DNA from: Lachnospiraceae bacterium
Lineage (GTDB): Bacteria; Bacillota; Clostridia; Lachnospirales; Lachnospiraceae
NCBI GenBank assembly: GCA_021770245.1
Contig: JAETRI010000005.1
Location: 1-64,000, forward strand
DNA length: 64,000 nt
Direction of reading: 5' to 3'
The notes beneath the pieces were generated by a model. The model was not told the DNA's origin. It was given only the letters and a program-made list of their open reading frames with translations, and ran no database searches. Positions within the stretch are counted from its first letter, which is position 1, and each line of letters opens with the position of its first letter. Below, one piece after another: positions 118 through 61,684 of this stretch. Made by a program: the position numbers and the translations under genes.

Positions 118-147
118 TGCGCGCCCTGCGCGCAGATAGGAGCAGGA
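118..147 (+). repeat. Family A start-site hairpin before the DUF4091 gene
   Basis: Stem TGCGCG / CGCGCA (118-123 with 129-134), loop CCCTG, then GATAGGAGCAGGA, which supplies an AGGAG Shine-Dalgarno 5 nt before ATG 148. The hairpin ends 13 nt before the start codon. It is the third family A stem in a row at this edge. Confidence 0.75.
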
Positions 148-1866
148 ATGAAGCAGATCATAGAATATCGCCAGGCGGGAATACGGCTGAAGGTGCTGGA
201 CAGCCTGGTTAAAGTGTTTTCGGACGAGGAGCCGGTGTGTGCGGGCGAATTCAGAGAGATCCAGGCGCTGCGGGGAGAATGCGTCTCCTTTCAGGTCGCC
301 TATACCTGCAGCGATTTTGAACGGGAAGATTCAGGGCTGTCCCATTTCGGGTTCGCCCGGGTCCGCGTTCTTTCGCCCATCGAAGCCTGCGTGCATGTGC
401 GCGGAGTATGTAACGTGCCCTGTCAGTATCCGGTTCATGCGGGCGTGGACGAAAACTACTTGAGAAAGGCGCCGGGGCTGTATCCGGACCGGCTGGAGGA
501 ACTGAGGGAGGATACGATAATTTTCCAGGCGGGACAGTGGAAAAGCCTTTGGATCGATGTGGAAGTGCCCGAAGAGGCGCAGGCCGGCGATTATCCGGTG
601 ACAATTGTATTTGAGCATCCGGAAGGCGGGAAAAGGATCGGTTCCGTGGAAACGGAGGTGACGATTCTGCCGGCCCTGCTCCCCGTTCAGCGTTTTCCCC
701 GGACGGAATGGTTCCATGCGGACTGCCTTGCGGACTATTATGAGGTTCCCGTTTTTTCGGAGGAGCACTGGAGGATCCTGGAAAACTTCATCGGTGCTGC
801 GGCAAAACGGGGGATCAATATGATTCTGACCCCTCAGTTTACGCCTCCGCTGGATACGGCGGTGGGAAAGGAACGGACCACCGTGCAGCTGGTGGATGTG
901 GAGCGGACGGAGTCCGGTTATTCCTTCGGATTTTCCAAGCTGGTGCGCTGGGTGGAAATGTGCAAAAGACAGGGAATTGTGTACTTTGAGATGTCCCATC
1001 TCTTTTCTCAATGGGGGGCGGTGGCGGCTCCGAAGGTGATAGGGAAAAAGGATGGCAGGATGGAGGAGCTTTTCGGATGGAATACCCCGGCAGTGGGAGG
1101 GGAATATACGGTATTTTTGCATGCCTATCTGCCCAGGCTGCGCCGGGTGCTCCGGGAACTGGGGATTGAGCAGAATACGTATTTTCATATTTCGGATGAA
1201 CCGAACGCAAAACAGATAGATTCCTATCGGGCGGCCCGGGAATCGGTGGCGGAAGAACTGGACGGCTGCAGGTTCCTGGAGGCCCTTTCCGATTATGAAT
1301 TCTACCGTCTGGGGCTGGTGGACAGGCCGGTATGCGCCACCAATCATGTGAAGCCTTTTTTACAGGGGGGAGCGCAGAGGCTGTGGACTTATTATTGCAC
1401 CGGGCAGGCGGCGGATGTGAGCAACTGCTTTATCGCCATGCCTTCGGACCGGACACGGATTTACGGGGTGCAGCTGTTTAAATTCGGGATAGAAGGCTGT
1501 CTGCACTGGGGATACAATTTTTATAACAGCGTGGAATCCCTGTACGGAATCGATCCCTTCCGGGTCACAGACAGCGGCGGCGCATTTCCGTCAGGCGATG
1601 CGTTCCTGGTCTATCCCGGTAAGGGAGGAAAGCCGGAGGAATCCATCCGTATGATGGTACTGGACGAAGCCATGGGAGACCTGCGTGCCCTCCTGCGCCT
1701 GTCCGAGCTTGTAGGGAGAAAGCGGGTGCTGGAGATGGTGGAAGAGGGGCTGGATGTGCCCTTGGATTTCGATGCCTTTCCCGCATATCCCCGGGCGGCG
1801 GATTATCTGCTGCGGCTGCGCAGAAGGGTAAACCGGGCGATCTGCGAGGCGGAAGCGGGCGCATGA
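148..1866 (+). CDS. DUF4091 domain protein, glycoside-hydrolase-like
   Basis: 572 aa, with no signal peptide, so probably cytoplasmic. The first ~170 residues look like a beta-rich accessory domain and the middle like a TIM-barrel glycosidase. Residues about 482-491 (SGDAFLVYPG) followed by SIRMMVLDEAMGDL match the DUF4091 signature, and HISDEPN near residue 350 is an acidic motif of the type seen at glycosidase active sites. DUF4091 proteins are uncharacterised or putative glycan-active enzymes in gut bacteria; the substrate cannot be read from sequence. ATG 148 has a good AGGAG site supplied by the family A element. The gene converges with the amino-acid ABC genes, leaving only 16 bp between stops. 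Confidence 0.85.
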   Translation: MKQIIEYRQAGIRLKVLDSLVKVFSDEEPVCAGEFREIQALRGECVSFQVAYTCSDFEREDSGLSHFGFARVRVLSPIEACVHVRGVCNVPCQYPVHAGVDENYLRKAPGLYPDRLEELREDTIIFQAGQWKSLWIDVEVPEEAQAGDYPVTIVFEHPEGGKRIGSVETEVTILPALLPVQRFPRTEWFHADCLADYYEVPVFSEEHWRILENFIGAAAKRGINMILTPQFTPPLDTAVGKERTTVQLVDVERTESGYSFGFSKLVRWVEMCKRQGIVYFEMSHLFSQWGAVAAPKVIGKKDGRMEELFGWNTPAVGGEYTVFLHAYLPRLRRVLRELGIEQNTYFHISDEPNAKQIDSYRAARESVAEELDGCRFLEALSDYEFYRLGLVDRPVCATNHVKPFLQGGAQRLWTYYCTGQAADVSNCFIAMPSDRTRIYGVQLFKFGIEGCLHWGYNFYNSVESLYGIDPFRVTDSGGAFPSGDAFLVYPGKGGKPEESIRMMVLDEAMGDLRALLRLSELVGRKRVLEMVEEGLDVPLDFDAFPAYPRAADYLLRLRRRVNRAICEAEAGA

Positions 1867-1882
1867 ATTGTGAACCGTTATC

Positions 1883-2659
1883 TCATGCCGGACCTTCTGC
1901 CGCCCCCCGGGCGCCGGCCTCCGGGATGCCGCCGATGGTCTGCAGAAACAGCCTGGTGCGTTCCTGCCTGGGATTGGCGAAGAATTCCCTGGAAGGCCCC
2001 TGTTCCAAAATGCTCCCGTTATCCATGAAGATGACTTTGGAGGAAACATTTCTTGCGAAATTCATTTCATGGGTTACCACGAGCATGGTCATCCCGTCCT
2101 CTGCGAGCCGGCGCATGACGGAAAGGACTTCACCGATCAGCTCCGGATCCAGGGCCGAGGTGGGCTCGTCAAAGAAGATGATTTCCGGTTCCGTGGCAAG
2201 AGCCCGGGCGATCGCCACACGCTGCTGCTGGCCGCCGGAGAGCTGATTGGGATAGTGGTCATACCGGTCGGACAGCCCAACCTTATCCAGGGCGCGTTTC
2301 CCGGCCTCCACTGCCCGGGCCTTGGGGATTTTCCGGGCGACGATCAGGCCCTCCGTTACATTCTGCAGCGCGGTTTTGTTCAGGAACAGATTATAGTTTT
2401 GAAATACAAAGGCTGTTTTCTTGCGGATTCTGGCGATATCCCTGCGCGAGATATGGTTCATCTGAAAGGTTTCGCCGTCAAAGATCATGACGCCCTCGTC
2501 CGCCTGCTCCAGATAATTGATGCAGCGCAGCAGGGTGGTCTTTCCGGAACCGCTGGGCCCGAGGATGGCGATCACGTCCCCTTGACTGACCTCCAGGCTC
2601 ACGTCCCGGAGCACCTCCAGGTTTCCGAATGTTTTTCTGATATTTTGTATCGTCAGCAT
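1883..2659 (-). CDS. Polar amino acid ABC transporter, ATP-binding protein
   Basis: 258 aa. Walker A GPSGSGKTT lies near residues 34-42, the Q-loop is in FVFQNYNLF, the ABC signature is LSGGQQQRVAIARAL, Walker B is IIFFDEPTSALD and the switch His is in VVTHEMNFA. This is the GlnQ/HisP class that powers uptake of polar amino acids. It lies 30 bp downstream of its permease on the minus strand, in the same operon. No solute-binding protein is encoded next to the pair, so the substrate is unknown and the binding protein must come from elsewhere. Confidence 0.95.
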   Translation of the reverse strand: MLTIQNIRKTFGNLEVLRDVSLEVSQGDVIAILGPSGSGKTTLLRCINYLEQADEGVMIFDGETFQMNHISRRDIARIRKKTAFVFQNYNLFLNKTALQNVTEGLIVARKIPKARAVEAGKRALDKVGLSDRYDHYPNQLSGGQQQRVAIARALATEPEIIFFDEPTSALDPELIGEVLSVMRRLAEDGMTMLVVTHEMNFARNVSSKVIFMDNGSILEQGPSREFFANPRQERTRLFLQTIGGIPEAGARGAAEGPA

Positions 2660-2689
2660 ATAGTCAACCGTGCCTTTCCGGAAATATCG

Positions 2690-3370: not shown

Positions 3371-3453
3371 GGTTTTGGTGATGCCTCCTTCTCGCTTTCT
3401 TCCGTGTGTGTTGAAAGGTATGACTGCGGGCGGGGAGTTTCAGCCCGGATATA

Positions 3454-3482
3454 AGTATAATCTGATTTTTAAAATATAACAA
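3454..3482 (-). promoter_or_regulatory. Promoter and inverted repeat of the amino-acid ABC operon
   Basis: Read on the minus strand: TTGTTA (3482-3477), a 17-nt spacer, TATACT (3459-3454), about 84 nt before the permease start. A perfect inverted repeat ATAAGTAT (3451-3458) / ATACTTAT (3482-3489) brackets the promoter. The LysR gene immediately upstream is a plausible ligand-dependent regulator acting here; that link is inference. Confidence 0.6.
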
Positions 3483-3502
3483 TACTTATCTTGTATGGCC
3501 TG

Positions 3503-5753: not shown

Positions 5754-5800
5754 GAAAGCCGGATCCGGCCAGAACCGGCCGTGCAGGAGGCATAAAAAGG

Positions 5801-5823
5801 TACCCGCTGAAGCGGGCAGGAGG
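5801..5823 (+). repeat. Family A start-site hairpin before galK
   Basis: Stem CCCGC / GCGGG (5803-5807 with 5812-5816), loop TGAA, then CAGGAGG, the Shine-Dalgarno of galK. The usual GAYGGGAGC tail is replaced by a canonical AGGAGG, but the geometry (14 nt from stem foot to ATG 5831) is kept. Confidence 0.6.
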
Positions 5824-5830: not shown

Positions 5831-6994
5831 ATGAAAGAAAAGATTCTGCAGAAGTTCGGAGAAGTGTTCGGCGGGGATACGGGAGCGTCGGTCTACTTCG
5901 CACCGGGCCGTGTGAACCTGATCGGGGAGCATACGGACTATAACGGCGGACACGTGTTTCCCTGTGCGCTGACGATCGGTACATACGGGGTGGCCCGACA
6001 GAGGGCGGATCGGAAGCTGCGCTTTTTCTCCATGAATTTTGACCACCTGGGCGTGCTGGAGGGCAGCCTGGACGAGCTGAAGCCGGATAAGGCGGCGGGC
6101 TGGACCAATTATCCGAAGGGCGTGATGTGGGCCTTTGAGGAGAGAGGATTCGAGATCCCCTATGGCATGGATCTGCTTTTATACGGAAATATTCCCAACG
6201 GCTCCGGACTTTCCTCTTCCGCATCCGTAGAGGTGCTGACGGGCTTTATCCTGCGGGACATGTTCGGCTTTTCCGTAACGAATCAGGATCTGGCGCTGAT
6301 CGGCCAGTACTCGGAGAACCGGTTTAACGGGGTAAACTGCGGAATTATGGATCAGTTCGCCATCGCCATGGGTAAGGAGAACCATGCGATTTTCTTAGAT
6401 ACAGCGGATTTAAAGTTTGAATATGCGCCCATTCGTCTGGAAGGGGCGAAGATCGTCATTGCCTGCAGCAACAAGAAAAGAGGGCTGGGTGATTCCAAAT
6501 ATAACGAAAGAAGGAGCGAGTGTGAAACCGCTCTCGCAGAGCTTCAGGAGGTGGTGGGGATCAATTCCCTGGGCGATCTGACGGAGGAGCAGTTTGAACA
6601 GTACAAATCGGCCATCAAGGACGACGTGCGAAGGAAACGGGCGAAACACGCGGTGTATGAGAACCAGCGTACCGTAAAAGCGGTGGAAGCGTTGAAGGCT
6701 GCCGATATTGCGCAGTTCGGACGGCTGATGAACGACTCCCACATATCCCTGCGGGACGACTACGAGGTGACCGGAGCCGAGCTGGATGCGCTGGTGGAAG
6801 CGGCGTGGGAGGTTGACGGAGTGATCGGCTCCCGTATGACCGGAGCGGGCTTTGGCGGATGTACGGTAAGCATTGTAAAAACGGACGCCATCGACGGCTT
6901 CATCGAGAAGGTCGGGGCCGAGTATCTGAAAAAGATCGGTTATGCCGCCGATTTCTATGTGGTGGAGATCGGGGACGGGCCGCGGGTGATTTGA
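5831..6994 (+). CDS. galK: Galactokinase
   Basis: About 387 aa from ATG 5831. It phosphorylates D-galactose with ATP to galactose-1-phosphate (Leloir pathway). Signatures: GRVNLIGEHTDYNGG near residues 23-37 (galactose binding), GSGLSSSASVEV (ATP-binding GHMP motif) and the C-terminal GAGFGGCTVSIV. I chose ATG 5831 over ATG 5825 because AGGAGG ends at 5823, which leaves proper spacing only for the second ATG. galT follows 38 bp downstream, so the product is passed to GalT. No galE or galM is in the window. Confidence 0.96.
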   Translation: MKEKILQKFGEVFGGDTGASVYFAPGRVNLIGEHTDYNGGHVFPCALTIGTYGVARQRADRKLRFFSMNFDHLGVLEGSLDELKPDKAAGWTNYPKGVMWAFEERGFEIPYGMDLLLYGNIPNGSGLSSSASVEVLTGFILRDMFGFSVTNQDLALIGQYSENRFNGVNCGIMDQFAIAMGKENHAIFLDTADLKFEYAPIRLEGAKIVIACSNKKRGLGDSKYNERRSECETALAELQEVVGINSLGDLTEEQFEQYKSAIKDDVRRKRAKHAVYENQRTVKAVEALKAADIAQFGRLMNDSHISLRDDYEVTGAELDALVEAAWEVDGVIGSRMTGAGFGGCTVSIVKTDAIDGFIEKVGAEYLKKIGYAADFYVVEIGDGPRVI

Positions 6995-7000
6995 TTTATA

Positions 7001-7026
7001 TGCGCGCCAAGGCGCGCAGATGGGAG
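7001..7026 (+). repeat. Family A start-site hairpin before galT
   Basis: Stem TGCGCGC / GCGCGCA (7001-7018, loop CAAG), then GATGGGAGC; the stem foot is 14 nt before ATG 7033. This copy pairs perfectly. The related copy at 54306-54323 has C-to-T changes in its 5' arm that keep G-U pairs. Confidence 0.75.
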
Positions 7027-7032
7027 CCAAAA

Positions 7033-8556
7033 ATGATTCAGGACAATATCAAGGAACTGGTGCGGTACGGATTGGCCACGGGGCTGGTGGAGCCGGAGGA
7101 CGCGGTCTATACGGCCAACAGGCTGCTGGAGATTTTCGGATTGGATGAGATAGAGGGGGAGATCCCCGTTTCGGCGGAGGGCTGTAGGGAGGAAGAACTT
7201 GTGGACCGGCTGGAAGGCATCCTGAAGGAAATGCTGGACTATGCCGCGCAGAAGGGCCTTTTGGAAAACGACAGCGTGGTTTACCGGGATCTGTTCGATA
7301 CGAAGATCATGAGCGTTTTGGTGGCACGTCCCAGCGAAATCATCCGGAGGTTCCGGGAGGAATATGCGAAATCCCCGGAAGCGGCCACGGAATATTTTTA
7401 TAAGTTCAGCCAGGATACGGATTATATCCGGCGCTATCGGGTGAGCAGGGATCAGAAGTGGGTTGCCCACACCAAGTACGGGGATCTGGACATTACCATC
7501 AACCTTTCCAAGCCGGAAAAAGACCCCAAGGCGATCGCGGCGGCCAGGAACGCAAAACAGAGCGCTTATCCCAAGTGCCAGCTGTGTATGGAAAACGAGG
7601 GCTATGCGGGCCGTGTGAACCATCCGGCCAGAGGGAACCACAGAATTATCCCCATTACGATCAACGGGGGAAGGTGGGGGTTCCAGTATTCCCCTTATGT
7701 GTATTATAATGAACATTGTATCGTGTTCAATGCCAACCATATTCCCATGAAGATCGAACATGATACCTTTGTGAAACTGTTCGACTTCGTGAAGCTTTTT
7801 CCCCACTATATGCTGGGTTCCAATGCGGATCTTCCCATTGTGGGCGGCTCGATTTTGAGCCATGACCATTTCCAGGGGGGCCATTATGAGTTCCCCATGG
7901 CAAAGGCGGAGGTGGAAAGGCGTTTTACGGTCAAGGGCTTTGAGGACGTGCAGGCGGGGGTGGTATGCTGGCCCATGTCGGTGATCCGCCTTTCCGGCCC
8001 GGACAGTGACAAGCTGATCGCTCTGGCGGACGTGATTCTGGAGAAGTGGCGGGGATACACGGACGAGGAGTCCTTCGTGTTTGCCGAGACGGACGGGGAA
8101 CCTCACAACACCATCACTCCCATCGCAAGAAAGCGGGGAGAGAATTTTGAACTGGATTTGGTGCTGCGTAACAACATCACCACGCAGGAGCATCCGTTGG
8201 GAGTCTACCATCCCCACGCGAAGCTCCATCATATCAAAAAGGAAAATATCGGCTTGATTGAGGTGATGGGCCTGGCAGTCCTGCCCTCCCGTCTGGACGG
8301 CGAGATGGCTGCGCTGGAAAAAGCTATTTTGGAGGGGGCGGATCTCCGGCAGGATGAAACGCTTCGGAAACATGCGGATTGGGTAGAGGAATTCCTTCCC
8401 AAATATGAGACGGTGAACGCGCAGACGATCCATGAGATCATCCGGACGGAGATCGGCCAGGTGTTCATGGAGGTGCTGGAAGACGCCGGGGTCTATAAGA
8501 GAACGGCAGAGGGCCAGGAAGGATTCGACCGGTTCCTGGCGGCGTTGAATCCGTAA
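7033..8556 (+). CDS. galT: UDP-glucose--hexose-1-phosphate uridylyltransferase (class II GalT)
   Basis: 507 aa from ATG 7033, the usual size for the Gram-positive class II GalT. It exchanges galactose-1-phosphate with UDP-glucose to give UDP-galactose and glucose-1-phosphate. The region GGSILSHDHFQGGHYEFP near residues 272-289 carries the HDH-type motif of this class. An in-frame reading extends 58 codons upstream into galK, but ATG 7033 follows the GGGAGC ribosome site of the family A element and begins with the typical N-terminus (IQDNIKELVRYGLATGL). It is the last gene of the galactose unit before a terminator at 8726. Confidence 0.95.
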   Translation: MIQDNIKELVRYGLATGLVEPEDAVYTANRLLEIFGLDEIEGEIPVSAEGCREEELVDRLEGILKEMLDYAAQKGLLENDSVVYRDLFDTKIMSVLVARPSEIIRRFREEYAKSPEAATEYFYKFSQDTDYIRRYRVSRDQKWVAHTKYGDLDITINLSKPEKDPKAIAAARNAKQSAYPKCQLCMENEGYAGRVNHPARGNHRIIPITINGGRWGFQYSPYVYYNEHCIVFNANHIPMKIEHDTFVKLFDFVKLFPHYMLGSNADLPIVGGSILSHDHFQGGHYEFPMAKAEVERRFTVKGFEDVQAGVVCWPMSVIRLSGPDSDKLIALADVILEKWRGYTDEESFVFAETDGEPHNTITPIARKRGENFELDLVLRNNITTQEHPLGVYHPHAKLHHIKKENIGLIEVMGLAVLPSRLDGEMAALEKAILEGADLRQDETLRKHADWVEEFLPKYETVNAQTIHEIIRTEIGQVFMEVLEDAGVYKRTAEGQEGFDRFLAALNP

Positions 8557-8560
8557 CAGC

Positions 8561-8697
8561 GTGAAATCTTCGATTTCACAGGAAACGAAAGTTTCCTTAG
8601 CCTGATTTGAATGCCCGCCGGGGCGGGCAGATGGGAATTGCAGATAAAAAACTGCATTCGCGGTTTCTCATCGTGCTGCCGCACAGAGCGCGGCATG
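8561..8697 (+). repeat. Composite hairpin array after galT (orphan copy)
   Basis: In the 391-bp gap after galT, five small hairpins follow one another: GTGAAATC / GATTTCAC (8561-8579); GGAAAC / GTTTCC (8581-8596); a family A stem TGCCCGC / GCGGGCA (8612-8629) with tail GATGGGAA; a degenerate D module (8640-8674, ending TTTCTCATCG); and a family C stem TGCCGC / GCGGCA (8677-8695). No start codon follows at the usual distance. The array runs straight into a terminator, so this copy does not serve a ribosome site. Confidence 0.75.
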
Positions 8698-8725
8698 CCG
8701 GTTAGAGACAGAGATGTGATTTCGG

Positions 8726-8947: not shown

Positions 8948-9721
8948 ATGGAAGAATCCTATAAAAAAGAGTCCATGGAAACGGACGTGAAGGTAAAGTC
9001 TTTGGTAAAAGCGGTTCAGGTGCTGGAATGTTTTACCGAGGAAAAGCCCAGCCTGGGTATTTCCGAAATGGCGGGTATGCTGGGGTATAATAAAACCACC
9101 ATATACAATATTGTAGCCACCTTTGCGTCTCTGGGATATCTGGTGCAGGATCCTGTTACGCAGAAATACAGTCTTGGGCTGAAACTGCTTCATTTCGGCT
9201 ATATCATTAACAGCCGAATCACATTGTCGGCAGCGTTGGAACCGTATTTGCAGAAAATAGCGGATGCAACCAGAGAAACGGTGTATTTGGGGATTCCCTA
9301 TGAAAGCAGGGTGCTCTATCTGGATACGAAGACGCCGGGGGCAGCGTTCCAAAGGCCTATTCTCGGAGAGAAGGCGCCTATGTACTGTACCGGACTGGGA
9401 AAATGTCTGCTGGCTTTTCGGACGGACAGGGACTTTTCGGATATACCGGATCCGCTTCCGGCATATACGGTGAATACGATTACCGGTAAGGCGGAGCTGT
9501 TAAAGGAGCTGGACGGAATCAGGCAGAGGGGGTATGCCGTGGACAACATGGAGCATGAATTCGGGATTTCCTGTGTGGCCGTTCCGTTATTCGGGCAGGC
9601 AAAGGAGGTGATCGGCGCTGTCAGTGTGTCGGGTCCGTCCCTTCGCTTTACGGAGGAATCGATGCCGAAGATCTATAGGATGATGGCAGATATCCTAGCA
9701 GAAGTGCAGTACATATATTAA
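8948..9721 (+). CDS. IclR-family transcriptional regulator
   Basis: 257 aa. The HTH is in residues ~15-75 (SLVKAVQVLECFTEEKPSLGISEMAGMLG...TTIYNIVATFASLGYLVQD) and the C-terminal effector domain about 85-255 (ETVYLGIPYESRVLYLD; GLGKCLLAF). Members usually respond to a sugar acid or an aromatic or sugar catabolite. The stop is only 36 bp before fucI, so the regulator and the isomerase almost certainly share a transcript and a pathway. The start follows GGGGAGAG. Confidence 0.92.
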   Translation: MEESYKKESMETDVKVKSLVKAVQVLECFTEEKPSLGISEMAGMLGYNKTTIYNIVATFASLGYLVQDPVTQKYSLGLKLLHFGYIINSRITLSAALEPYLQKIADATRETVYLGIPYESRVLYLDTKTPGAAFQRPILGEKAPMYCTGLGKCLLAFRTDRDFSDIPDPLPAYTVNTITGKAELLKELDGIRQRGYAVDNMEHEFGISCVAVPLFGQAKEVIGAVSVSGPSLRFTEESMPKIYRMMADILAEVQYIY

Positions 9722-9728
9722 CGGGAGT

Positions 9729-9752
9729 GCGTGCTTTGCACGCGGATGGGAG
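9729..9752 (+). repeat. Family A start-site hairpin before fucI
   Basis: Stem GCGTGC / GCACGC (9729-9734 with 9738-9743), loop TTT, then GGATGGGAGC; the stem foot is 14 nt before ATG 9758. The arm sequence differs from other copies but is fully paired. Confidence 0.72.
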
Positions 9753-9757
9753 CAAAT

Positions 9758-11554
9758 ATGGCAGAGAACAGATACATAGGAAAATATCCGGTGATCGGCA
9801 TAAGGCCGGTGATAGACGCCAGACGCGGATATCTGGATGTGAGGGGATCTTTGGAGGAACAGACCAGGAATATGGCATTGTCGGCCAAACGTCTGTTTGA
9901 AGAGAAGCTCCGGTATTCCAACGGGGAACAGGTACAGGTGGTCATCTCTCCCACGACTATCGGCCGCGCAGCGGAGGCGGCGCGGTGTGCGGATTATTTT
10001 GAGCGGGAGGGCGTGGCTGTCACGCTGACCGTGACGCCCTGCTGGTGTTATGGGGCGGAAACCATGGATATGTCTCCGCATACCATCAAGGGCGTGTGGG
10101 GCTTTAACGGGACGGAGCGCCCCGGAGCGGTCTATCTGGCTTCCGTGCTGGCAACCCATGCCCAGAAAGGCCTGCCCGCATTCGGCATCTATGGACATGA
10201 CGTGCAGGAGGCGGATTCTACGGAAATCCCTGCAGACGTGGAAGAGAAGCTTCTCCGATTCGGACGTGCGGCGGTCGCCGCCGCAACCATGCGCGGAAAA
10301 TCTTACCTGCAGATCGGTTCCGTCTGTATGGGGATCGGCGGCTCGATCATCGATCCGGCTTTCCTGGAAGAATACCTCGGTATGCGCGTGGAGTCCGTGG
10401 ATGAGGTGGAAATCCTGCGCCGTATGGAAAAGGGGATCTACGATCAGGAAGAATTTGAAAAGGCCTATCGATGGACCAGGAAGTACTGCAGGGAGGGATT
10501 CGATAAAAATCCGGTCGAAATTCAAAAAACGCCCGAGGAAAAGGAAGAGGACTGGAAATTTGTGGTCAAGACCATGTGCATCATCAAGGATTTGATGAAC
10601 GGGAATCAAAATCTTCCGAAGGGAAACGAAGAAGAGATGCTGGGCCACAATGCCATTGCGGCCGGCTTCCAGGGACAGAGACAGTGGACGGATTATTATC
10701 CGAACTGCGATTTCGCGGAGGCGCTGTTAAATACCACTTTTGACTGGAACGGCGCCAGGGAGCCCTATATCCTGGCTACGGAAAACGATGTGTTAAACGG
10801 TCTGGGCATGCTGTTTTTAAAGCTTCTTACGAACCGGGCACAGATCTTTGCGGACGTGCGCACCTATTGGAGCCCTGAGGCGGTGAAAAAGGCGGCCGGA
10901 TATGAGCTGGAGGGTGCAGCGAAGGAAGCCGGCGGATTTATTCACCTGATCAATTCCGGAGCGGCGTGTCTCGACGCCTGCGGCAGAGCCAGGGACGCGG
11001 AGGGAAATCCGGTTATGAAGCCATGGTATGAGGTTACGGATGAGGATCAGGCGGCTATCCTGGAGGCAACCACCTGGAACGAAGCGGATTTCGGGTATTT
11101 CAGGGGAGGCGGTTATTCGTCCAGATTTGTTACAAAGGCCCAGATGCCCGTGACCATGATACGGCTGAATCTGGTAAAGGGCCTGGGGCCCGTGCTTCAG
11201 ATCGCAGAAGGCTGGACCGTGCAGCTGCCCGACGAGGTGACGGATATCCTGTGGAAACGGACGGATTACACCTGGCCCTGCACCTGGTTTGCCCCGAGAT
11301 GCGACGGGAAAGAAGGACCCTTCCGTGATGCCTACAGCGTGATGAACAACTGGGGGGCAAATCATGGGGCTATCAGCTACGGGCACATCGGCGCCGATCT
11401 TATTACGATGTGTTCCATGCTGCGTATCCCCGTAAGCATGCATAATGTGGCGGAGGATAAGATCTTCCGTCCTGCGGTATGGAATGCCTTTGGCATGGAC
11501 AAGGAAGGACAGGACTACAGGGCATGCGCGGCTTTCGGGCCGCTGTATAAATAG
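9758..11554 (+). CDS. fucI: L-fucose isomerase
   Basis: 598 aa, the normal size for FucI, which converts L-fucose to L-fuculose (also D-arabinose to D-ribulose) using Mn2+. Recognisable family stretches are [19 protein letters not shown] at the N-terminus, [13 protein letters not shown], and [15 protein letters not shown], which carries the metal-binding Glu and Asp of the family. I chose ATG 9758 because it follows the GGGAGC site of the family A element; a 9-codon upstream extension would start inside the hairpin. No fuculokinase or aldolase is in the window. A stem-loop at 11596 follows. Confidence 0.95.
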
Positions 11555-11721: not shown

Positions 11722-12651
11722 ATGAAAATCGACAGATTAATAGGCATTCTGTCCATCCTGCTGCAGAAGGATGTGGTTACGGCCCCCAGTCTGGCGGAAC
11801 ACTTTGAGGTTTCCAGACGGACGATTGGCAGGGACATTGACGCCCTGTGTCAGGCGGGGATCCCGATTGTGACCAGGCAGGGCGCCAACGGGGGAATCTC
11901 CATCATGGAGAACTACAAAATAAGCAGAACCCTTCTTACCAACCGGGAGATGCAGGACATCCTTGCCGGACTGCGCAGCCTGGACAGCATCAACGGGACA
12001 AACCGGTACGGGCAGCTGATGGAAAAGCTGTCGGCTGGCTCCTCGGACTTTATGAGCGGGAACCAGTCCGTGCTGATCGATCTTTCATCCTGGTATAAGG
12101 CCTCCCTGGCGCCCAAAATAGAATTGATCCGCAGCGCGATCGATCTCTCCCGGGAGATGGAATTTCTCTATTTTGCGCCTCATGGAGAAAGCGTAAGGAG
12201 GATTGAGCCGTACTATCTGATTTTCAGATGGTCGAGCTGGTATGTATGGGGGTGGTGCAGGGAGCGGGAAGATTACCGCCTGTTTAAGCTGAATCGGATG
12301 GAAGAGGTACGGATTACGGAGGAGAGCTTCACGAAACGGACCGTACCCCTGCCGGATCTGAGCAATGAACGGATCTTTCCCGGAGGTATCCGCGTCAAGG
12401 CGGTGTTCGATGCGAGGTGTAAATGGAGGCTGGTGGAGGAGTTCGGCAGGGGGTGCTACGAAGAACTGCCGGACGGGAAGCTTTTGTTCCGGGCGGATTA
12501 TACGGATCCGGATAATCTGCTTTCCTGGCTTTTCTCCTTCCGGGATCAGGCAGTGCTTCTGGAACCGGAGGAGCTTAGGCGCGAGATGGAAGGGATATTG
12601 GAGCGGATGGCAAAAGGCTACGGGGAGAGGAAAAAATCCCCTCCGAATTGA
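11722..12651 (+). CDS. HTH/WYL-domain transcriptional regulator (YafY-type)
   Basis: 309 aa from ATG 11722. The DeoR-like HTH is in residues ~1-60 (RLIGILSILLQKDVVTAPSLAEHFEVSRRTIGRDIDAL) and the WYL domain about 140-220 (FLYFAPHGESVRRIEPYYLIFRWSSWYVWGWCRERED), then a C-terminal wing domain. These regulators sense a small ligand or nucleic acid through the WYL domain. GGGGGAG precedes this ATG; the upstream in-frame ATG has no ribosome site. The stop codon TGA lies inside a repeat copy (12645-12666), and a DUF3795/GyrI pair follows. Confidence 0.92.
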   Translation: MKIDRLIGILSILLQKDVVTAPSLAEHFEVSRRTIGRDIDALCQAGIPIVTRQGANGGISIMENYKISRTLLTNREMQDILAGLRSLDSINGTNRYGQLMEKLSAGSSDFMSGNQSVLIDLSSWYKASLAPKIELIRSAIDLSREMEFLYFAPHGESVRRIEPYYLIFRWSSWYVWGWCREREDYRLFKLNRMEEVRITEESFTKRTVPLPDLSNERIFPGGIRVKAVFDARCKWRLVEEFGRGCYEELPDGKLLFRADYTDPDNLLSWLFSFRDQAVLLEPEELRREMEGILERMAKGYGERKKSPPN

Positions 12652-12785
12652 GAGCCGCCTTGCGGCATGAAAGGGGTTAGGTTGAAAAAAGGCCTGATGG
12701 CCTTTTTTCAACCGGGAATTTGTGCTGCCGCACAAAGTTCCCTTTGAATTGAGAGCCGCCTTGCGGCGGCAGAATGGTGGTTAAA
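12645..12785 (+). repeat. Composite hairpin array between WYL and DUF3795 genes
   Basis: A 22-bp direct repeat (12645-12666 and 12746-12767, core GAGCCGCCTTGCGGC) flanks two hairpins: GGTTGAAAAAAGGCC with its complement (12680-12694 / 12699-12713, loop TGAT) and GGGAATTTGTG / CACAAAgTTCCC (12714-12742, one bulged G). The second repeat copy continues as the family B start cassette (hairpin, AGAATGGTGGTTAAA, ATG 12786). The first copy contains the stop codon of the WYL gene. Confidence 0.82.
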
Positions 12786-13085
12786 ATGACGGAAAACAAA
12801 TTGAATTTAAGCTGCTGTGGGACAAACTGCGCCGTCTGCAGCTTCTATGGCGGCATGTGTGCCGGATGTAACGAATGTGAAGGAAAAGTATTCCACGCGC
12901 CTAAGGGCAGCGCCTGCCGGATCTATGAATGCTCCGTTCAAAAGAACGGATACGAAAACTGCAAAGACTGTGCCAAGCTGCCCTGCGACATCTGGAAGGC
13001 TACAAAGGATCCTTCCATGTCGGACGAGGAATTTGAGAATTCCATCAGAGAGCGTATCAATAACCTGAAAGGAAGTATGAATTGA
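12786..13085 (+). CDS. DUF3795 cysteine-rich protein
   Basis: 99 aa from ATG 12786. Ten cysteines in metal-site-like spacing (SCCGTNCAVCSFYGGMCAGC; CRIYEC; CKDCAKLPCDIW) match DUF3795, a small putative zinc-binding family of unknown role. An in-frame ATG 12 nt upstream (12774) is possible. The 28 nt up to and including ATG 12786 are identical to those before the YitT gene at 48463, which argues that the second ATG is the intended start. It overlaps the GyrI-like gene by one base. The WYL + DUF3795 + GyrI trio suggests a shared small-molecule or metal response. Confidence 0.88.
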   Translation: MTENKLNLSCCGTNCAVCSFYGGMCAGCNECEGKVFHAPKGSACRIYECSVQKNGYENCKDCAKLPCDIWKATKDPSMSDEEFENSIRERINNLKGSMN

Positions 13086-17436: not shown

Positions 17437-17535
17437 GCCGCCTGCGGCGGCAGAATGAGAGGAAGATTGAAAATTAAAATATTCAATCTTACGGATTTGG
17501 GCCTATTCCCGTTTGGGGAAGACCCAAAACGGGAA
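17437..17535 (+). repeat. Composite hairpin array before the Gfo/Idh gene
   Basis: Three hairpins in the 134-bp gap: a family B stem GCCGCC / GGCGGC (17437-17451) followed by AGAATGAGAGG; AAGATTGAA / TTCAATCTT (17463-17490); and TTCCCGTTT / AAACGGGAA (17506-17535), whose foot is 16 nt before ATG 17552. The last stem again abuts the ribosome site. Confidence 0.7.
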
Positions 17536-17551
17536 AGGCATGGGTATAAAA

Positions 17552-18604
17552 ATGGAAGATCGTGGGGATAAAGTTACCTTCGGGTTTGCGGTCATCGGAT
17601 GCGGTCTGATTTCACGGTTCCACATCGGCGCGATCGAAGAGATTGACGACGCATTCCTTGCCGGTGTCTATGACCAGAACCGGGAGGCGGCCGAAAAGAC
17701 GGCCGGAGAACATGGTGTACGCTGTTACGACAGTTTTAAAGAGGCCCTTGACGATCCGGCGGTGGATGTGGTCTGTATCTGTACGCCCAGTTACCTGCAT
17801 GCCTCCATGGCGTGCAGCGCGGTGGAGGCGGGAAAGTCCGTGCTGGTGGAAAAGCCTCTGGCGCTCTGCCTGGAGGACTGTGACCGTCTGATTGAACTGG
17901 CGGCGCAGAAGGGAGTACAGGTGGGAACGGTTTCCCAGCTTCGTTTTGCACCCGCCATCGGTAAAGTGAAGAAAGCGATGCAGGACGGGACGCTGGGCAG
18001 GCTTACCAGAGCCGATCTGTATATGAAGTACTATCGCTCCCAGGAATATTACGATCAGGGGGGCTGGCGGGGGACCGTGGAAAAGGACGGCGGCGGCGCC
18101 CTGATGAACCAGGGCATCCATGGGGTGGATCTTCTGAGGTACCTGGCCGGGCCGGTAAAAAGCATTTATGCGCTGAGCGCCACGAGGGTGCATGACATCG
18201 AGGTGGAGGATACGCTTACGGCCGCCTTATCCTTCCAGAACGGGGCACTCGGAGTGATAGAGGCCTCCACGGGGGATTGGCCGGGCGCGCCGCGCCGGCT
18301 GGAGCTGAACGGGGAATGCGGCGTCATCATTCTGGAGGAGGACCGCATCGTAAAATGGGAAGTGGAAGGGGAAAAGGGATTTTCCCTGTATGAGCGCAAC
18401 GACGTTCAGACGGAATCCCACCGCGATCCGGGGAAAATCGATGCATCCGGACATGTGTGTCAGATACGGAATTTCATCAGCGCCCTGCGGGGGGAAACAG
18501 AGCTTTTGGTGGACGGAAAGGAAGGCAGGAAAGCGCTGGAGCTGATCCTTTCCGCATATGCTTCCGCGGAAACGGGAGAGGCAGTCGTGCCGGGCGCGGG
18601 ATGA
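17552..18604 (+). CDS. Gfo/Idh/MocA-family oxidoreductase
   Basis: About 350 aa. The Rossmann motif is FAVIGCGLISRFHIGAI near residues 12-28, VEKPLAL contains the family's dinucleotide-site Lys, and GGGALMNQGIHGVDLLRYL carries the substrate-site His. It is an NAD(P)-dependent sugar or inositol dehydrogenase of unknown substrate. In-frame starts at 17540 and 17552 are both possible; the spacing from the preceding hairpin and the weak GGG site favours 17552. It lies between the MR/MLE gene and a 2-hydroxyacid dehydrogenase, so the three likely form an oxidation-isomerisation series. Confidence 0.9.
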   Translation: MEDRGDKVTFGFAVIGCGLISRFHIGAIEEIDDAFLAGVYDQNREAAEKTAGEHGVRCYDSFKEALDDPAVDVVCICTPSYLHASMACSAVEAGKSVLVEKPLALCLEDCDRLIELAAQKGVQVGTVSQLRFAPAIGKVKKAMQDGTLGRLTRADLYMKYYRSQEYYDQGGWRGTVEKDGGGALMNQGIHGVDLLRYLAGPVKSIYALSATRVHDIEVEDTLTAALSFQNGALGVIEASTGDWPGAPRRLELNGECGVIILEEDRIVKWEVEGEKGFSLYERNDVQTESHRDPGKIDASGHVCQIRNFISALRGETELLVDGKEGRKALELILSAYASAETGEAVVPGAG

Positions 18605-18639: not shown

Positions 18640-19629
18640 ATGAAAATTGCGATGTTGTTGGAAGAGGAATTAAGACAGGATCTGTTTTCACAGGCGGCTA
18701 TGGAAAGGCTTGGCCGTCTGGGAGAGGTGGTCTGTAACGAGACGGGTAAAAAGGACGAAGAGACGATAGGGGAACTGTTAAAGGGGGCCGATATCGCCAT
18801 TTCCTCCTGGGGAACGCCGCAGCTGACAAAGGAGCTGTTAAGTAACGCGCCGGATCTGAAGCTGGTGGCCCATGCGGCAGGCAGCGTGAAGGGCGTCGTA
18901 TCGGACGAGCTCTACGACAGGGGAATCCGGGTGATCTCCAGCGCGCGCGTACTCAGCAGAGGGGTATCCGAGATGGCCATGGGGCTTGCCATCGCCGCCG
19001 CGAAAAACATATTTGCCTATAACGCTTCCATCCACGCGGGAAACTGGCCGTCGGATAAGAGCGAGGTGAGCGAACTTTTCGATATCAATGTGGGCGTGGT
19101 GGGATGCGGCTTCGCAGGCTCGCATTTCATCGAGCTGCTGCAGGACTATGGGGTGAACGTACTGGCCTATGACCCCGGAGTGAGTGAGGAGCGGATACGG
19201 GCGCTGGGAGCGAAGAAGGCGGAACTGGAAGAGGTATTCCGGCAAAGCGATATCCTTTCCCTGCACGCGCCGTCCATCGATGCCACAAAACATATGGTGA
19301 ACGAAGAAACCCTGGGGTGGATGAAGGAGAACGCGATCCTGATCAATACGGCACGGGGCTCCCTGATCGACGAAGAAGCGCTTTACCGGTGCATGAAAGG
19401 CGGAAAACTGAAATATGCCTGCCTGGACGTGACGGATCCGGAACCGCCTGCGGCGGATCATCCCCTGTATGAACTGCCGAACTGTATTTTTACGCCCCAT
19501 GTGGCAGGGCTTGCCAATAACGGGAAACGGAAGATCGGCGTTCATGTCTGTCAGGAAATAGAACGGTTCGAGAAAGGTGAGCCGCTCGAAACGCAGGTGA
19601 CGAAGGAAATGCTTGCCACGATTGCATGA
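18640..19629 (+). CDS. D-2-hydroxyacid dehydrogenase, NAD-dependent
   Basis: 329 aa. The NAD-binding motif VGVVGCGFAGSHF lies near residues 147-159. Catalytic residues are visible: Arg in INTARGSL, Glu in the DPEPP stretch and His in FTPHVAG. This is the SerA/glyoxylate reductase fold; members interconvert 2-oxo and D-2-hydroxy acids. AGGAGGGAG precedes ATG 18640. In this operon it may reduce a keto acid released from a sugar acid; phosphoglycerate dehydrogenase activity is less likely since no ACT domain is present. Confidence 0.92.
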   Translation: MKIAMLLEEELRQDLFSQAAMERLGRLGEVVCNETGKKDEETIGELLKGADIAISSWGTPQLTKELLSNAPDLKLVAHAAGSVKGVVSDELYDRGIRVISSARVLSRGVSEMAMGLAIAAAKNIFAYNASIHAGNWPSDKSEVSELFDINVGVVGCGFAGSHFIELLQDYGVNVLAYDPGVSEERIRALGAKKAELEEVFRQSDILSLHAPSIDATKHMVNEETLGWMKENAILINTARGSLIDEEALYRCMKGGKLKYACLDVTDPEPPAADHPLYELPNCIFTPHVAGLANNGKRKIGVHVCQEIERFEKGEPLETQVTKEMLATIA

Positions 19630-23936: not shown

Positions 23937-23973
23937 TGTGTAAAGGGAAGTGTGAAAGATTTACTGATTTATT

Positions 23974-24000
23974 TGCACGCAGTAGCGCGCAGACGGGAGC
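23974..24000 (+). repeat. Family A start-site hairpin before the isomerase
   Basis: Stem TGCACGC / GCGCGCA (one A-C mismatch), loop AGTA, then GACGGGAGC; the foot is 13 nt before ATG 24005. Confidence 0.7.
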
Positions 24001-34933: not shown

Positions 34934-34997
34934 GCCGTCCTGCGGCGGCAGAAGGGAAAATTTGATGAAAAGAAGCCGTGCACGGCACGGATGGGAG
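34934..34997 (+). repeat. Family B stem and family A start-site hairpin before a 34-codon gene
   Basis: A family B stem GCCGTC / GGCGGC (34934-34949, one T-G wobble) is followed by AGAAGGG; then a family A stem GCCGTG / CACGGC (34975-34986) and GATGGGAGC, with its foot 16 nt before ATG 35003. This element is good evidence that the tiny open frame behind it is translated. Confidence 0.7.
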
Positions 34998-35002
34998 CGG
35001 AT

Positions 35003-37720: not shown

Positions 37721-37746
37721 TGCCGCAAAGGACGCGGCATGAAAGG
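37721..37746 (+). repeat. Family C start-site hairpin before the Lrp gene
   Basis: Stem TGCCGC / GCGGCA (37721-37726 with 37734-37739), loop AAAGGAC, then TGAAAGG as Shine-Dalgarno; the foot is 13 nt before ATG 37753. Confidence 0.7.
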
Positions 37747-37752
37747 ATTCGT

Positions 37753-48431: not shown

Positions 48432-48465
48432 GCCGTCTTGCGGCGGCAGAATGGTGGTTAAAATG
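48432..48465 (+). repeat. Family B start cassette before the YitT gene
   Basis: Stem GCCGTC / GGCGGC (one T-G wobble), then AGAATGGTGGTTAAA and the start ATG. The last 28 nt, including the start codon, are identical to those before the DUF3795 gene at 12786, although the two genes are unrelated. Confidence 0.8.
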
Positions 48466-54305: not shown

Positions 54306-54440
54306 TGTGTGCCAAGGCGCGCAGACGGGGGCCTCTAAACTGAGATCCGCCTGGCGGCACCAGGAATTGAGATCACAGGCGAGAAAGCGCATACGCGATC
54401 TCACGTCGCGGTGCCGCAGAGGGCGCGGCATGAAAGGGGT
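54306..54440 (+). repeat. Long composite hairpin array before the second permease
   Basis: Order: family A stem TGTGTGC / GCGCGCA (54306-54323, two G-U pairs) with tail GACGGGGGC; CCTCTAAA; family B-like stem CCGC / GCGG (54347-54357); degenerate D stem TGAGATC / GATCTCA (54368-54103 region end 54403); family C stem TGCCGC / GCGGCA (54412-54430); then TGAAAGGGG as Shine-Dalgarno, 14 nt from stem foot to ATG 54445. The same module order occurs at 58925-59126. Confidence 0.78.
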
Positions 54441-54444
54441 TAAA

Positions 54445-58921: not shown

Positions 58922-58924
58922 GGC

Positions 58925-59126
58925 GCCTGCGAAAGCAGGCAGGATTCCTCTAAATTGCGAGCCGCCTGGCGGTGGCAGAATGGTGCTTAGTGCGGGAAAC
59001 AGGCCTGGCGGCCTATTTCCCGTACCCGGATTTGGGCCGTCTGCGGCCCAAATCCGAATCGCAGATGAGAAATCGCATTCGTGAATTTCTCATTGCGCTG
59101 CTACGAAGGACGTGGCATGAAAGGAC
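58925..59126 (+). repeat. Long composite hairpin array between citD and citE
   Basis: Order: family A-like stem GCCTGC / GCAGGC (58925-58940); CCTCTAAA; family B stem GCCGCC / GGTGGC (58961-58976) with AGAATGGTG; stem CGGGAAA..GGCC / GGCC..TTTCCCG (58993-59022); stem GGATTTGGGCCG / CGGCCCAAATCC (59028-59055); GAATCGCA; stem ATGAGAAAT / ATTTCTCAT (59065-59093); family C stem TGCTAC / GTGGCA (59099-59117); TGAAAGG; ATG at 59131. This is the fullest copy in the window. Confidence 0.85.
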
Positions 59127-59130
59127 TAAA

Positions 59131-60042: not shown

Positions 60043-61610
60043 TCAACGCTGTTGGAAGGGATATTCCGGAGGAAATATTAGCCGTTACGGGGAAGGAAGT
60101 TTTTCAGGGAAATTCCCACTTTGACGATTATGAATATACGAAGGTGGGCGCCCATACTAGGTGCGTGGTACGCTCCGGCGGGGATAAGCTGGTGAAAAGT
60201 ATCCGGGATGCCCTGATAAAGTGCGGCATCCGGGACGGGATGACGCTGGGGTTTCACCACCATTTCCGAGACGGGGATTATGTGGTGAACATGGTTATAG
60301 AGGAGGTGCACCGGCTGGGGATCCGGGACATTACCATATGTGCCAGCTCTTTGGGAAAAGCCCATGACGGTCTGGTAAAGTATATCGAAGACGGAACGAT
60401 TACCAACATCCAGTCCTCGGGTGTGAGGGGAAAGATCGGGGAGGCCATTTCCGCAGGTAAGCTACAGGGGCTCGCAGTTATGCGCTCCCATGGAGGGCGC
60501 GTCCGGGCCATCGAGACAGGGGAGGTGAAGGTGGATATCTCATTTATAGGCGCGCCTACCTGTGACGACTATGGAAATTGCCGTGGGATCGGAGGAAAAG
60601 CGGACTGCGGTGTGCTCTCCTACGCGATGGTGGATGCCGATTATGCGGACAAGGTGGTGGCGGTGACGGACTGCCTGGTGGAATTCCCCAATTTTCCCGC
60701 GCATATCTCCATGACAAAGGTGGACTATGTGGTGGTCGTGGATGCCATCGGGGATCCTCGGAAGATCGCCTCGGGGGCCGCCGCTCCCACCACAAGTATG
60801 CGGAAACTCATGATGGCGGATTATTGTACGCAGTTTGTGGTACATTCTCCCTATTTTAAAGACGGATTCTCCTACCAGACCGGTGTCGGAGGCGCTTCGA
60901 TTGCCTCCACGGTTTTCCTGGCGAAGGTTATGAAGGAACGGGGGATACGGATGCGCTTCGGCGTCGGGGGACTGACCAAGCCCATGTGTGATCTGCTGAT
61001 CCATGATCAGGTGGACTGCCTGCTGGATACCCAGGATTTTGATCTGGACGCGGTAGCTTCGGTGAAAGATCTAAAGCATTTCAGGATCAGCGCCGGGGAA
61101 TATGCGGATCCGTTTAATAAGGGGGCTGTGGTAAATAAACTGGATTTCGTCATTCTGGGAGCCCTGGAGGTGGACGTGGATTTTAACTGCAATGTGGTGG
61201 TCGGCTCGGACGGCACGATCATCGGGGCCCAGGGAGGCCATCCGGACACGGCGGCGGGAGCGAAGTGTACGATTGTTATCGTACCTCTGCTTCAGGGAAG
61301 GACTCCCACAGTACGTACGGCGGTCACCACGGTAACAACGCCCGGCGAGTCTGTGGATGTTGTGGTTACGGATTACGGGATTGCCATCAATCCCAGAAGA
61401 GAGGACCTTTTGGAGGCCATGAGGGATGTGAAGCTTCCGTTTACATCCATTGAGAAGCTGCGGGATACGGCATATGAAATTGCGGGAGAGCCGCAGCCCA
61501 TCGAATTTGAGGACCGGGTGGTGGGGATTATTGAAAGCCGGGACGGGACGATTATGGATGTTGTCCGCAGGGTGAAGCCCTATTCTTTACCGGAAACGAC
61601 GGGACGGTAG
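60039..61610 (+). CDS. citF: Citrate lyase alpha subunit (citrate:acetyl-ACP transferase)
   Basis: 523 aa, full length for CitF. It exchanges the acetyl group of the carrier protein for citrate. CoA-transferase-like fold with GMTLGFHHHFRDGDYV, SFIGAPTCDDYGNCRG and SDGTIIGAQGGHPDTAAGA as family stretches. citD, citE and citF give the complete lyase core. The ligase (CitC), the prosthetic-group genes (CitX, CitG) and a citrate transporter are not in the window. Confidence 0.95.
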   Translation: MINAVGRDIPEEILAVTGKEVFQGNSHFDDYEYTKVGAHTRCVVRSGGDKLVKSIRDALIKCGIRDGMTLGFHHHFRDGDYVVNMVIEEVHRLGIRDITICASSLGKAHDGLVKYIEDGTITNIQSSGVRGKIGEAISAGKLQGLAVMRSHGGRVRAIETGEVKVDISFIGAPTCDDYGNCRGIGGKADCGVLSYAMVDADYADKVVAVTDCLVEFPNFPAHISMTKVDYVVVVDAIGDPRKIASGAAAPTTSMRKLMMADYCTQFVVHSPYFKDGFSYQTGVGGASIASTVFLAKVMKERGIRMRFGVGGLTKPMCDLLIHDQVDCLLDTQDFDLDAVASVKDLKHFRISAGEYADPFNKGAVVNKLDFVILGALEVDVDFNCNVVVGSDGTIIGAQGGHPDTAAGAKCTIVIVPLLQGRTPTVRTAVTTVTTPGESVDVVVTDYGIAINPRREDLLEAMRDVKLPFTSIEKLRDTAYEIAGEPQPIEFEDRVVGIIESRDGTIMDVVRRVKPYSLPETTGR

Positions 61611-61654
61611 GCAAAAGATGGGAGCAGGGAATCTTCTTAATCTAAATTTAAAAA

Positions 61655-61680
61655 CGCGCTAAAGTGCGCAGACGGGAGGC
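61655..61680 (+). repeat. Family A start-site hairpin before the second serine hydrolase
   Basis: Stem CGCGC / GTGCG (one G-T pair), loop TAAA, then CAGACGGGAGG. The GGGAGG site ends 5 nt before TTG 61685. A stray AGATGGGAGC tail without a stem lies just upstream (61617-61626). Confidence 0.68.
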
Positions 61681-61684
61681 GAAA

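What the first reader, a model, noticed from the sequence alone, without database searches (positions are those of the whole stretch)
118..61684. Hairpins locked onto ribosome sites: three sequence families, one geometry
Thirteen unrelated genes (DUF4091, galK, galT, fucI, DUF3795, sugar isomerase, nagB, a 34-codon gene, Lrp, YitT, LplC-like permease, citE, a serine hydrolase) are preceded by a short GC-rich stem whose 3' foot is 12-16 nt from the start codon, directly against the Shine-Dalgarno. Family A: stem + GAYGGGAGC. Family B: GCCGCC-type stem + AGAATGGTGGTTAAA. Family C: TGCCGC/GCGGCA + TGAAAGG. Many genes with ordinary AGGAGG sites in the same operons (nagA, SBP, the dehydrogenase) lack them. 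This resembles a modular translation-start system: mRNA protection, ribosome standby, blocking of read-in from the upstream gene, or a target for an RNA-binding protein.
Basis: seen in the sequence. Interest (0 to 1): 0.86.

Follow-up and report, generated by a model that had tools for sequence, protein, structure and literature searches.

The report
Mobile hairpins that replace ribosome sites
In this gut bacterium and a close relative, short hairpin-shaped repeats appear to have spread to the exact gap between the ribosome-binding site and the start of many genes, each bringing its own replacement ribosome-binding site, a kind of repeat for which I found no description.

Summary
All 13 stems are in the window, and hairpin feet pile up 12-15 nt before starts (34 seen, 4.3 expected). 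A foot 11-17 nt before the start was found at 61/583 starts here and 70/845 in relative G009 (other distances: 19-23 and 16-33), against 1/361 in galT loci of other genera.

The best reading is not a fixed regulatory system. These are dispersed, modular repeats of at least five families inserted between the Shine-Dalgarno (SD) sequence and the start codon, bringing a new SD. Support: ordinary RBSs in relatives at galK, galT and fucI; sites filled in one genome and empty in the other; a family with 21 exact copies only in this genome; chains in which an older SD faces a 'decoy' NTG; the same A element before starts in other genera. Stems covary, so the hairpin itself probably matters.

What moves them is unknown: no Y1 transposase in G000 or G009, no reverse transcriptase in G009 or G099, no longer parent copy of family E. 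Any effect on translation is untested.

The parts
38..77 (+). Family A copy, first of two tandem units before the GH123 gene
   Evidence: R2 hit, 57.5 bits
105..143 (+). Family A copy before the start at 148 (GH123/DUF4091)
   Evidence: R2 hit, 49.9 bits; stem 118-134
5803..5816 (+). Stem CCCGC/GCGGG before galK (5831)
   Evidence: same stem in G009
6988..7027 (+). Family A copy before galT (7033); its TGATTTGA holds the galK stop
   Evidence: R2 hit, 56.8 bits; a B-ended chain in G009, ordinary RBS in relatives
8599..8638 (+). Family A copy in a chain behind galT that does not lead to a gene I could recognise
   Evidence: R2 hit, 45 bits; sequence
9715..9753 (+). Family A copy before fucI (9758)
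   Evidence: R2 hit, 28.7 bits
12755..12785 (+). Family B stem (12755-12770) and tail AGAATGGTGGTTAAA before the 99-aa gene at 12786; last unit of a chain starting near 12640
17437..17462 (+). Family B unit, first in the chain before 17552
17463..17551 (+). Left hairpin plus family E unit (core 17499-17535, RBS AGGCATGGGTATAAAA); site empty in G009
23961..24000 (+). Family A copy before the TIM-barrel isomerase (24005)
   Evidence: R2 hit, 47.5 bits
26105..26144 (+). Family A copy before nagB (26152)
   Evidence: R2 hit, 43.6 bits
34976..35002 (+). Stem and A-type tail before the 34-codon gene (35003)
   Evidence: weak R2 hit 34962-34998, 18.9 bits, E 0.22
37721..37752 (+). Family C stem and TGAAAGG tail before Lrp (37753); a different sequence in G009
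48432..48462 (+). Family B stem with one wobble, and tail, before YitT (48463)
54412..54444 (+). Family C stem and tail before the LplC-like permease (54445)
59099..59130 (+). Family C stem with one wobble, and tail, before citE-like gene (59131)
61640..61684 (+). Weak family A copy before the serine hydrolase (TTG at 61685)
   Evidence: R2 hit 61640-61679, 20.8 bits, E 0.07; sequence

Best explanation
They are a set of short (about 40-110 nt) palindromic dispersed repeats that are inserted, in the sense direction wherever a start follows, at the junction between SD/spacer and start codon. A full unit is: an AT-rich hairpin that usually begins NTGAAA, a linker (CCTGATTTGTA in family A), a GC hairpin, a new SD and a new spacer. 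After insertion the old SD faces the unit's NTG (decoy start, inside the first hairpin) and the unit's SD faces the gene's own start codon, so the gene keeps an RBS. Further units insert at the same place and build chains. Shown: position, gain and loss between related species, a species-specific amplification, chains, covarying stems. Inferred: that DNA units move (by an unknown recombinase, or by recombination or template switching between look-alike RBS|start junctions), that insertion is targeted rather than only selected, and that the hairpins mask the decoy start or keep the new SD open.
For: Position: of 63 family A hits in 853 kb, 38 have a start 3-7 nt after GGGAGC and 10 run into another A copy. 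Of the other 15, by eye 10 also lead to a start, another unit or a contig end, 2 have a start only 34 and 37 nt on, 3 lead to none. Family E: 21 exact copies in G000, 0 in 12 other genomes of the genus; 17 of 21 are followed by an ORF of at least 60 aa, 14 of them at one fixed distance (one of the 17, L259, starts at the NTG of a further unit); 3 by a start with a short ORF, 1 by another unit. By eye the left flanks end in an SD-like sequence of another unit or, in 4 copies (L260, L262, L264, L270), of no recognised unit. Family D: 26 copies, 13 before an ORF, 11 before another unit. Turnover: 228 orthologous starts, 185 alignable to the start, 43 not. Clean cases: window 17552 empty in G009; window 18640 empty here, filled in G009 behind the kept AAAAGGAGGGAG; an E unit inside a B-type site that G009 also has (L271). 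Ordinary RBS in relatives at galK, galT, fucI. Other genera: 18 of 20 A hits fetched are followed 3-9 nt later by an ORF start; in G099 an SD-like sequence lies 6-9 nt before the decoy in 5 of the 8 sense copies that one pattern picked from 20 loci. Stems: 94.1% of cells paired, 48 double-change cells against 16.6 in shuffles; 20 copies from four other genera 92.0%, 12 against 6.2.
Against: No mobilising enzyme or longer parent copy was found. No target duplication or terminal inverted repeats were seen by eye. Boundaries are blurred: G009 is only 77-89% identical in DNA. 29 of 49 hairpins have one at the same distance in G009, so some may be long-lived and functional. The decoy NTG is not universal: several G009 units lack it, and in 2 of 8 G099 copies its first base is unpaired (L316, L364). 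Some relatives have GC hairpins further upstream of the same genes (L175 at galT, L181/L182 at fucI). Some filled/empty calls are start-calling artefacts (for example genes 70, 235, 256, 382, 430). In one search two of the five measures do not exceed shuffles (pairs with a double change 268/500, pair types 262/500), and sliding by two columns still gives 58-76% pairing because the stem alternates G and C.
Confidence: 0.74

Rival explanations
1. A host translational control system: the hairpin next to the SD is a functional module (standby site, insulation from upstream RNA, or target of an RNA-binding protein), kept by selection and only shuffled between genes by recombination.
For: Stem covariation; 29 of 49 hairpins with one at the same distance in G009; conserved unpaired TGATTTG and CAGATGGGAG across genera; slightly more open SD in silico.
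Against: Fast turnover and a one-species family; ordinary RBS at three genes in relatives; genes of unrelated function; chains whose inner SDs face no gene; start codon slightly less open in silico.
Confidence: 0.35
2. Movement needs no dedicated enzyme: template switching or ectopic recombination between look-alike RBS|NTGAAA junctions copies whole units from one start to another.
For: Both junctions of many units look like RBS|NTG; tandem arrays of about 66 and 73 nt; no Y1 transposase in G000 or G009 and no RT in G009 or G099.
Against: Matching stretches are short and degenerate; near-identical E copies at unrelated genes in one species suggest efficient copying. Only two enzyme families were searched for.
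Confidence: 0.35
3. A REP-like or IS200/IS605-derived repeat moved by a Y1 (RAYT/TnpA) transposase.
For: Small palindromes at high copy, hairpins near both ends.
Against: No Y1_Tnp match in G000 or G009, although 6 of 13 genomes of the genus have one over the cut-off. The assemblies are 96-97% complete, so a missed gene is possible.
Confidence: 0.08
4. Chance stems, terminators or gene-calling artefact.
For: Home-made gene caller; 54% G+C window; hairpins at other distances are not rare (19-23 of 583).
Against: 8-fold excess at 12-15 nt, excess over other distances, 1/361 in loci of other genera, covariation.
Confidence: 0.01

Closest known systems
REP/BIME elements with RAYT transposases
   Same: Small dispersed palindromes in many copies, in tandem and mosaic arrays, outside genes
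   Different: No Y1 transposase in G000 or G009; sit at translation starts in sense direction and carry an SD; the GTAG/GGAG foot of REPs is recalled and was not seen in family A
MITEs and ERIC/RU-type small mobile repeats (reviewed in PMC2229807; abstract start and two passages seen)
   Same: Short non-autonomous repeats that become part of mRNAs; ERIC RNA is said there to affect stability of upstream transcripts
   Different: No terminal inverted repeats, target duplication or parent transposon seen; insertion confined to the RBS|start junction with RBS replacement. A term search of that paper (ribosome, Shine, start codon, translation, initiation codon) showed two passages, neither on such a case
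BOX elements of Streptococcus pneumoniae (recalled)
   Same: Modular, hairpin-forming, mosaic intergenic repeats in a Firmicute
   Different: Not compared here by sequence; not known to me to carry the RBS or sit at start codons
Stem-loop sequence families of bacterial genomes (PMC2267715; abstract start and four passages seen)
   Same: Families of intergenic repeats folding into stem-loops
   Different: The term search of that paper found no occurrence of ribosome, Shine or start codon

Membership tests
REP/RAYT | Y1_Tnp (RAYT) gene in the genome | tested here: not met
   PF01797: 0 in G000 and G009; the assemblies are 96-97% complete
REP/RAYT | Conserved GTAG/GGAG tetranucleotide at the 5' foot (recalled) | tested here: not met
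   Family A feet read TGATTTGTA/AGATGGGAG; not scanned for the other families
MITE | Terminal inverted repeats and target duplication | tested here: inconclusive
   None seen by eye in 21 E copies; the relative is too distant for exact boundaries
MITE | Larger parent element with the same ends | tested here: not met
   Family E only: of 29 left-end matches, 28 printed rows are E-type (two pairs of rows show the same place, so 26 places) and all have the right part directly behind them
Retroelement (group II intron, retron) | Reverse transcriptase in every carrier | tested here: not met
   RVT_1: 3 in G000, 0 in G009, G099 and G025, 1 each in G138 and G036
Known structured RNA (Rfam) | Score above a family cut-off | tested here: not met
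   0 matches in the window at gathering thresholds; other loci not scanned
Small mobile repeat (general) | Lineage-specific presence at many unrelated loci with empty orthologous sites | tested here: met
Integron cassette array | Integron integrase and attC sites | not tested
   Only the array-like growth resembles it

The most novel reading that the evidence does not exclude
A new kind of mobile DNA whose attachment site is the start-codon junction itself. The unit is built as [NTG...SD-spacer], so crossing over with a gene's [SD-spacer|ATG] restores an RBS|start pair on both sides. That lets it occupy the junction of many genes (roughly 7-10% of starts here) without killing them, stack in chains, and hold the decoy start in a hairpin, so that the host's translation starts become rewired by a selfish element.
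Probability: 0.45. Interest if true: 0.9.

Novelty: new variant of a known kind. Interest (0 to 1): 0.8.

Why it matters
Small bacterial repeats are usually seen as intergenic passengers. Here they land on one of the most constrained points of a gene and replace its ribosome-binding site, at roughly 7-10% of starts in a gut bacterium (61 of 583, of which about 20 would be expected from the other distances), and they differ between related species. That would make RBS replacement by mobile repeats a source of expression change, gives a natural set of matched filled/empty starts for testing hairpin effects on translation, and raises the question of how DNA mobility can find start codons.

Tried and rejected
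Rfam scan of the window: nothing. Y1 transposase and reverse transcriptase as movers: absent from key carriers; no other enzyme family was searched. Autonomous longer E copies: none. Phage or plasmid carriage: one exact family A pattern 0 in viral contigs, the E stretch of the window 0 in plasmids; other families not searched there. Leader-peptide reading of the first hairpin: some decoy ORFs end by overlapping the next start (ATGA/GTGA, for example L314, L316, L319, read by eye), others stop early or run in frame, so not kept. SD sequestration by the CTCCC upstream: not conserved in other genera (by eye). Operon-position bias: weak (50 of 57 element starts have a codirectional upstream neighbour, 429 of 512 without element). 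Literature: six answered searches aimed at repeats or hairpins at ribosome sites (two of them returned no paper) and one on the genus with repeats listed no title that describes such elements; only listings and starts of abstracts were seen, plus passages of two papers. Subscription journals and preprints are not covered.

Errors of mine: model R1 was built with the structure one column off and was not used; R2 replaced it. The row 'E by left end' has distances distorted by the ATG inside GGCATGGG and is not used. Some gene starts called by my own gene finder are wrong (noted where they matter). Alignment A2 holds all 87 matches up to E 1, including several opposite-strand readings of the same stems, and is fitted to the structure, which flatters the pairing figure.
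Full report
WHAT WAS GIVEN. The window is contig C63 of an unnamed 4.28 Mb genome, G000. Its galT is nearest among the named records returned to an uncultured Eisenbergiella (76% identity), and most of the 80 listed relatives are Lachnospiraceae by title. No Rfam family matches the window. G009 is a genome of the same genus with the second large set of copies.

OBSERVATION. All thirteen stems exist: eight perfect, five with a wobble or mismatch. I took 40 stretches of the genome without regard to the motif, called genes with a simple codon-usage script (582 genes), and listed hairpins of at least 6 bp with at least 5 G-C pairs. Of 268 non-coding hairpins, 34 have their foot 12-15 nt before a start codon against 4.3 expected, and 25 have it at 0-3 nt against 4.9. 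In a second test, a hairpin foot at 11-17 nt was found at 61 of 583 starts in G000 (23, 19 and 22 at the control distances 25-31, 35-41 and 45-51), 70 of 845 in G009 (33, 16, 28), 12 of 249 in five other genomes of the genus taken together (5, 8, 4; G001 4/48, G010 1/50, G002 4/59, G004 1/55, G006 2/37) and 1 of 361 in 80 galT loci of other genera (7, 1, 0). So the excess is strong in G000 and G009, weak and small in number in the rest of the genus, and absent outside; the last group is galT neighbourhoods only.

ANATOMY. Family A is longer than reported: CCTGATTTGTA, then a 6-7 bp stem, then AGATGGGAGC. The stem varies with compensation. In 87 aligned matches (82 distinct), 94.1% of cells pair and 48 cells carry a double change (shuffles 16.6; 0 of 500 as high). 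Two of five measures do not exceed the shuffles. Sliding the partner by one column drops pairing to 13-22%, by two columns to 58-76%. The alignment includes weak and some opposite-strand matches and is fitted to the structure, so the figures lean upward. Many copies are preceded by a second, AT-rich hairpin starting NTGAAA (TTGAAAG...CTTTCAA and relatives). Two more families appear in the same place: D (GGCAGTATCGCA...TGCGATATGCAGGGGTATAA) and E (TTTGGGCCTATTCCCG...CGGGAAAGGCATGGGTATAA). Units occur in tandem, about 66 nt apart for A and 73 nt for D, and in mixed chains such as B then E at window 17437-17551.

POSITION. A covariance model of A without spacer or start codon (R2) gave 63 hits at E<0.01 in 853 kb. 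38 have a start codon 3-7 nt behind GGGAGC, 2 have one only at 34 and 37 nt, 10 run into another A copy, 1 lies in a gene whose start was mis-called, and 12 are 'other'. Reading those 12, I count 9 that lead into a unit of another kind, a missed gene or a contig end, and 3 with nothing behind them. Family E: 21 exact copies; 17 precede an ORF of at least 60 aa, 14 of them at one exact distance (one of the 17 is the NTG of a further unit); 3 precede a start with a short ORF and 1 another unit. Family D: 26 distinct copies; 13 precede an ORF, 11 another unit, 1 a contig end, 1 a start with a short ORF. Random insertion filtered by selection should leave many copies in neutral intergenic DNA, so near-exclusive residence at starts argues for targeting. 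That is inference.

TURNOVER. The word GCAGATGGGAGC occurs 94 times in G000, 131 times in G009, and 0-12 times in each of 11 other genomes of the genus. G009 is syntenic with the window at about 77-89% DNA identity. Of 580 G000 starts, 228 have an orthologous start in the G009 DNA that I held. 185 align up to the start, 27 differ on both sides, 10 are longer only in G009, 3 only in G000, 3 have no anchor; some of the 13 one-sided cases are start-calling artefacts. Clean cases, by eye: at 17552, G009 reads GGAGGTTGACG-ATG while G000 has GGAGCTTAAG, then B, a hairpin and E, then ATG (one-sided class). At 18640, G000 reads AAAAGGAGGGAGAAGCAGTCAA-ATG and G009 keeps AAAAGGAGGGAG, then an A unit, then ATG (counted under both sides differ). 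At L271 both species have a B-type RBS and G000 has an E unit between it and the conserved start. Family E exists in G000 alone among 13 genomes. galT and galK have ordinary RBSs in the seven relatives checked, fucI in six; some of these have a GC hairpin further upstream (L175 at galT, L181 and L182 at fucI). Against a pure turnover story, 29 of 49 strong G000 hairpins have one at the same distance in G009, although a few of these lie in coding sequence or belong to different families. Several shared sites changed the stem with pairing kept (for example genes 59 and 101).

DECOY START. In chains the SD of an inner unit is followed by NTGARA of the next unit at the distance of a real start: 11 of 11 such junctions at 4 nt in G000, and 10 of 15 at 4 nt in G009. 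9 and 21 further pattern matches in the two genomes had neither a called start nor such an NTG; some of these are missed genes, coding matches, or units without NTG. The junctions are not independent, since many come from tandem copies. In another genus (G099), a DNA search with one copy found 23 further matching pieces. A pattern picked 8 sense copies out of 20 loci; 5 of them have an SD-like sequence 6-9 nt before the decoy NTG (L313, L314, L317, L319, L363; by eye). So the left junction reads SD-spacer|NTG(unit) and the right one SD(unit)-spacer|NTG(gene): the pattern expected from exchange at an RBS|start junction.

RANGE. R2 finds family A in 6 of 150 genomes of the family: G000, G009 and four other genera with 1, 4, 10 and 8 hits (stricter filters, candidates capped at 44 per genome). 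I fetched 20 of those 23; 18 are followed 3-9 nt later by a start of an ORF over 40 aa and 2 are not. These 20 also show covariation (92.0% paired, 12 double-change cells against 6.2 in shuffles). The patchy range fits mobility between lineages or repeated loss. No copy was found in viral contigs with one exact pattern, and no plasmid matched the E stretch.

MECHANISM. Most likely these are non-autonomous repeats inserted at the SD|start junction, carrying a replacement SD. The mover is unknown: Y1 transposase is absent from G000 and G009, reverse transcriptase is absent from G009 and G099, and no longer E version exists among the E-type left ends read (28 rows, 26 places). The hairpins may serve the element (folded single-stranded ends), the host (SD exposure, decoy start masked), or both. 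Folding gives a small effect in both directions: SD a little more open, start codon a little less. Covariation suggests that the stem matters but not whether as RNA or DNA.

COMPARISON. They resemble REP, MITE, ERIC and BOX repeats (partly from recall) in size, palindromes and mosaic arrays, but fail the tests made for REP/RAYT, for a MITE parent of family E, and for retroelements. Literature searches gave no description of repeats that insert between SD and start codon. Hence a new variant of small bacterial repeats, with a real chance of being a distinct kind.

Noticed in passing
window 1-148; G000:C91:45-84: The 66-nt tandem A units sit at the edges of contigs C63 and C91; arrays of these repeats probably break the assembly.
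   Followed up: no
L314, L316, L319: In G099 the ORF opened by the decoy NTG ends in a TGA that overlaps the next start codon (ATGA/GTGA), as in translational coupling; other copies do not.
   Followed up: partly
L238, L239, L242, L246, L248, L249: Related genomes G001, G002 and G010 have their own TGCCGCC-type or similar GC hairpins 14-17 nt before some starts, so lineage-specific families may exist across the genus.
   Followed up: no
window 8556-8700: A chain of hairpin, A and C units behind galT leads to no recognised gene: perhaps the remnant of a lost start or a terminal array.
   Followed up: no
G009 contig C24 near 10972-11150: A tandem array in which the left hairpin reads ATAGAAAA instead of NTGAAA, so the decoy start is not essential.
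   Followed up: no
   Followed up: yes
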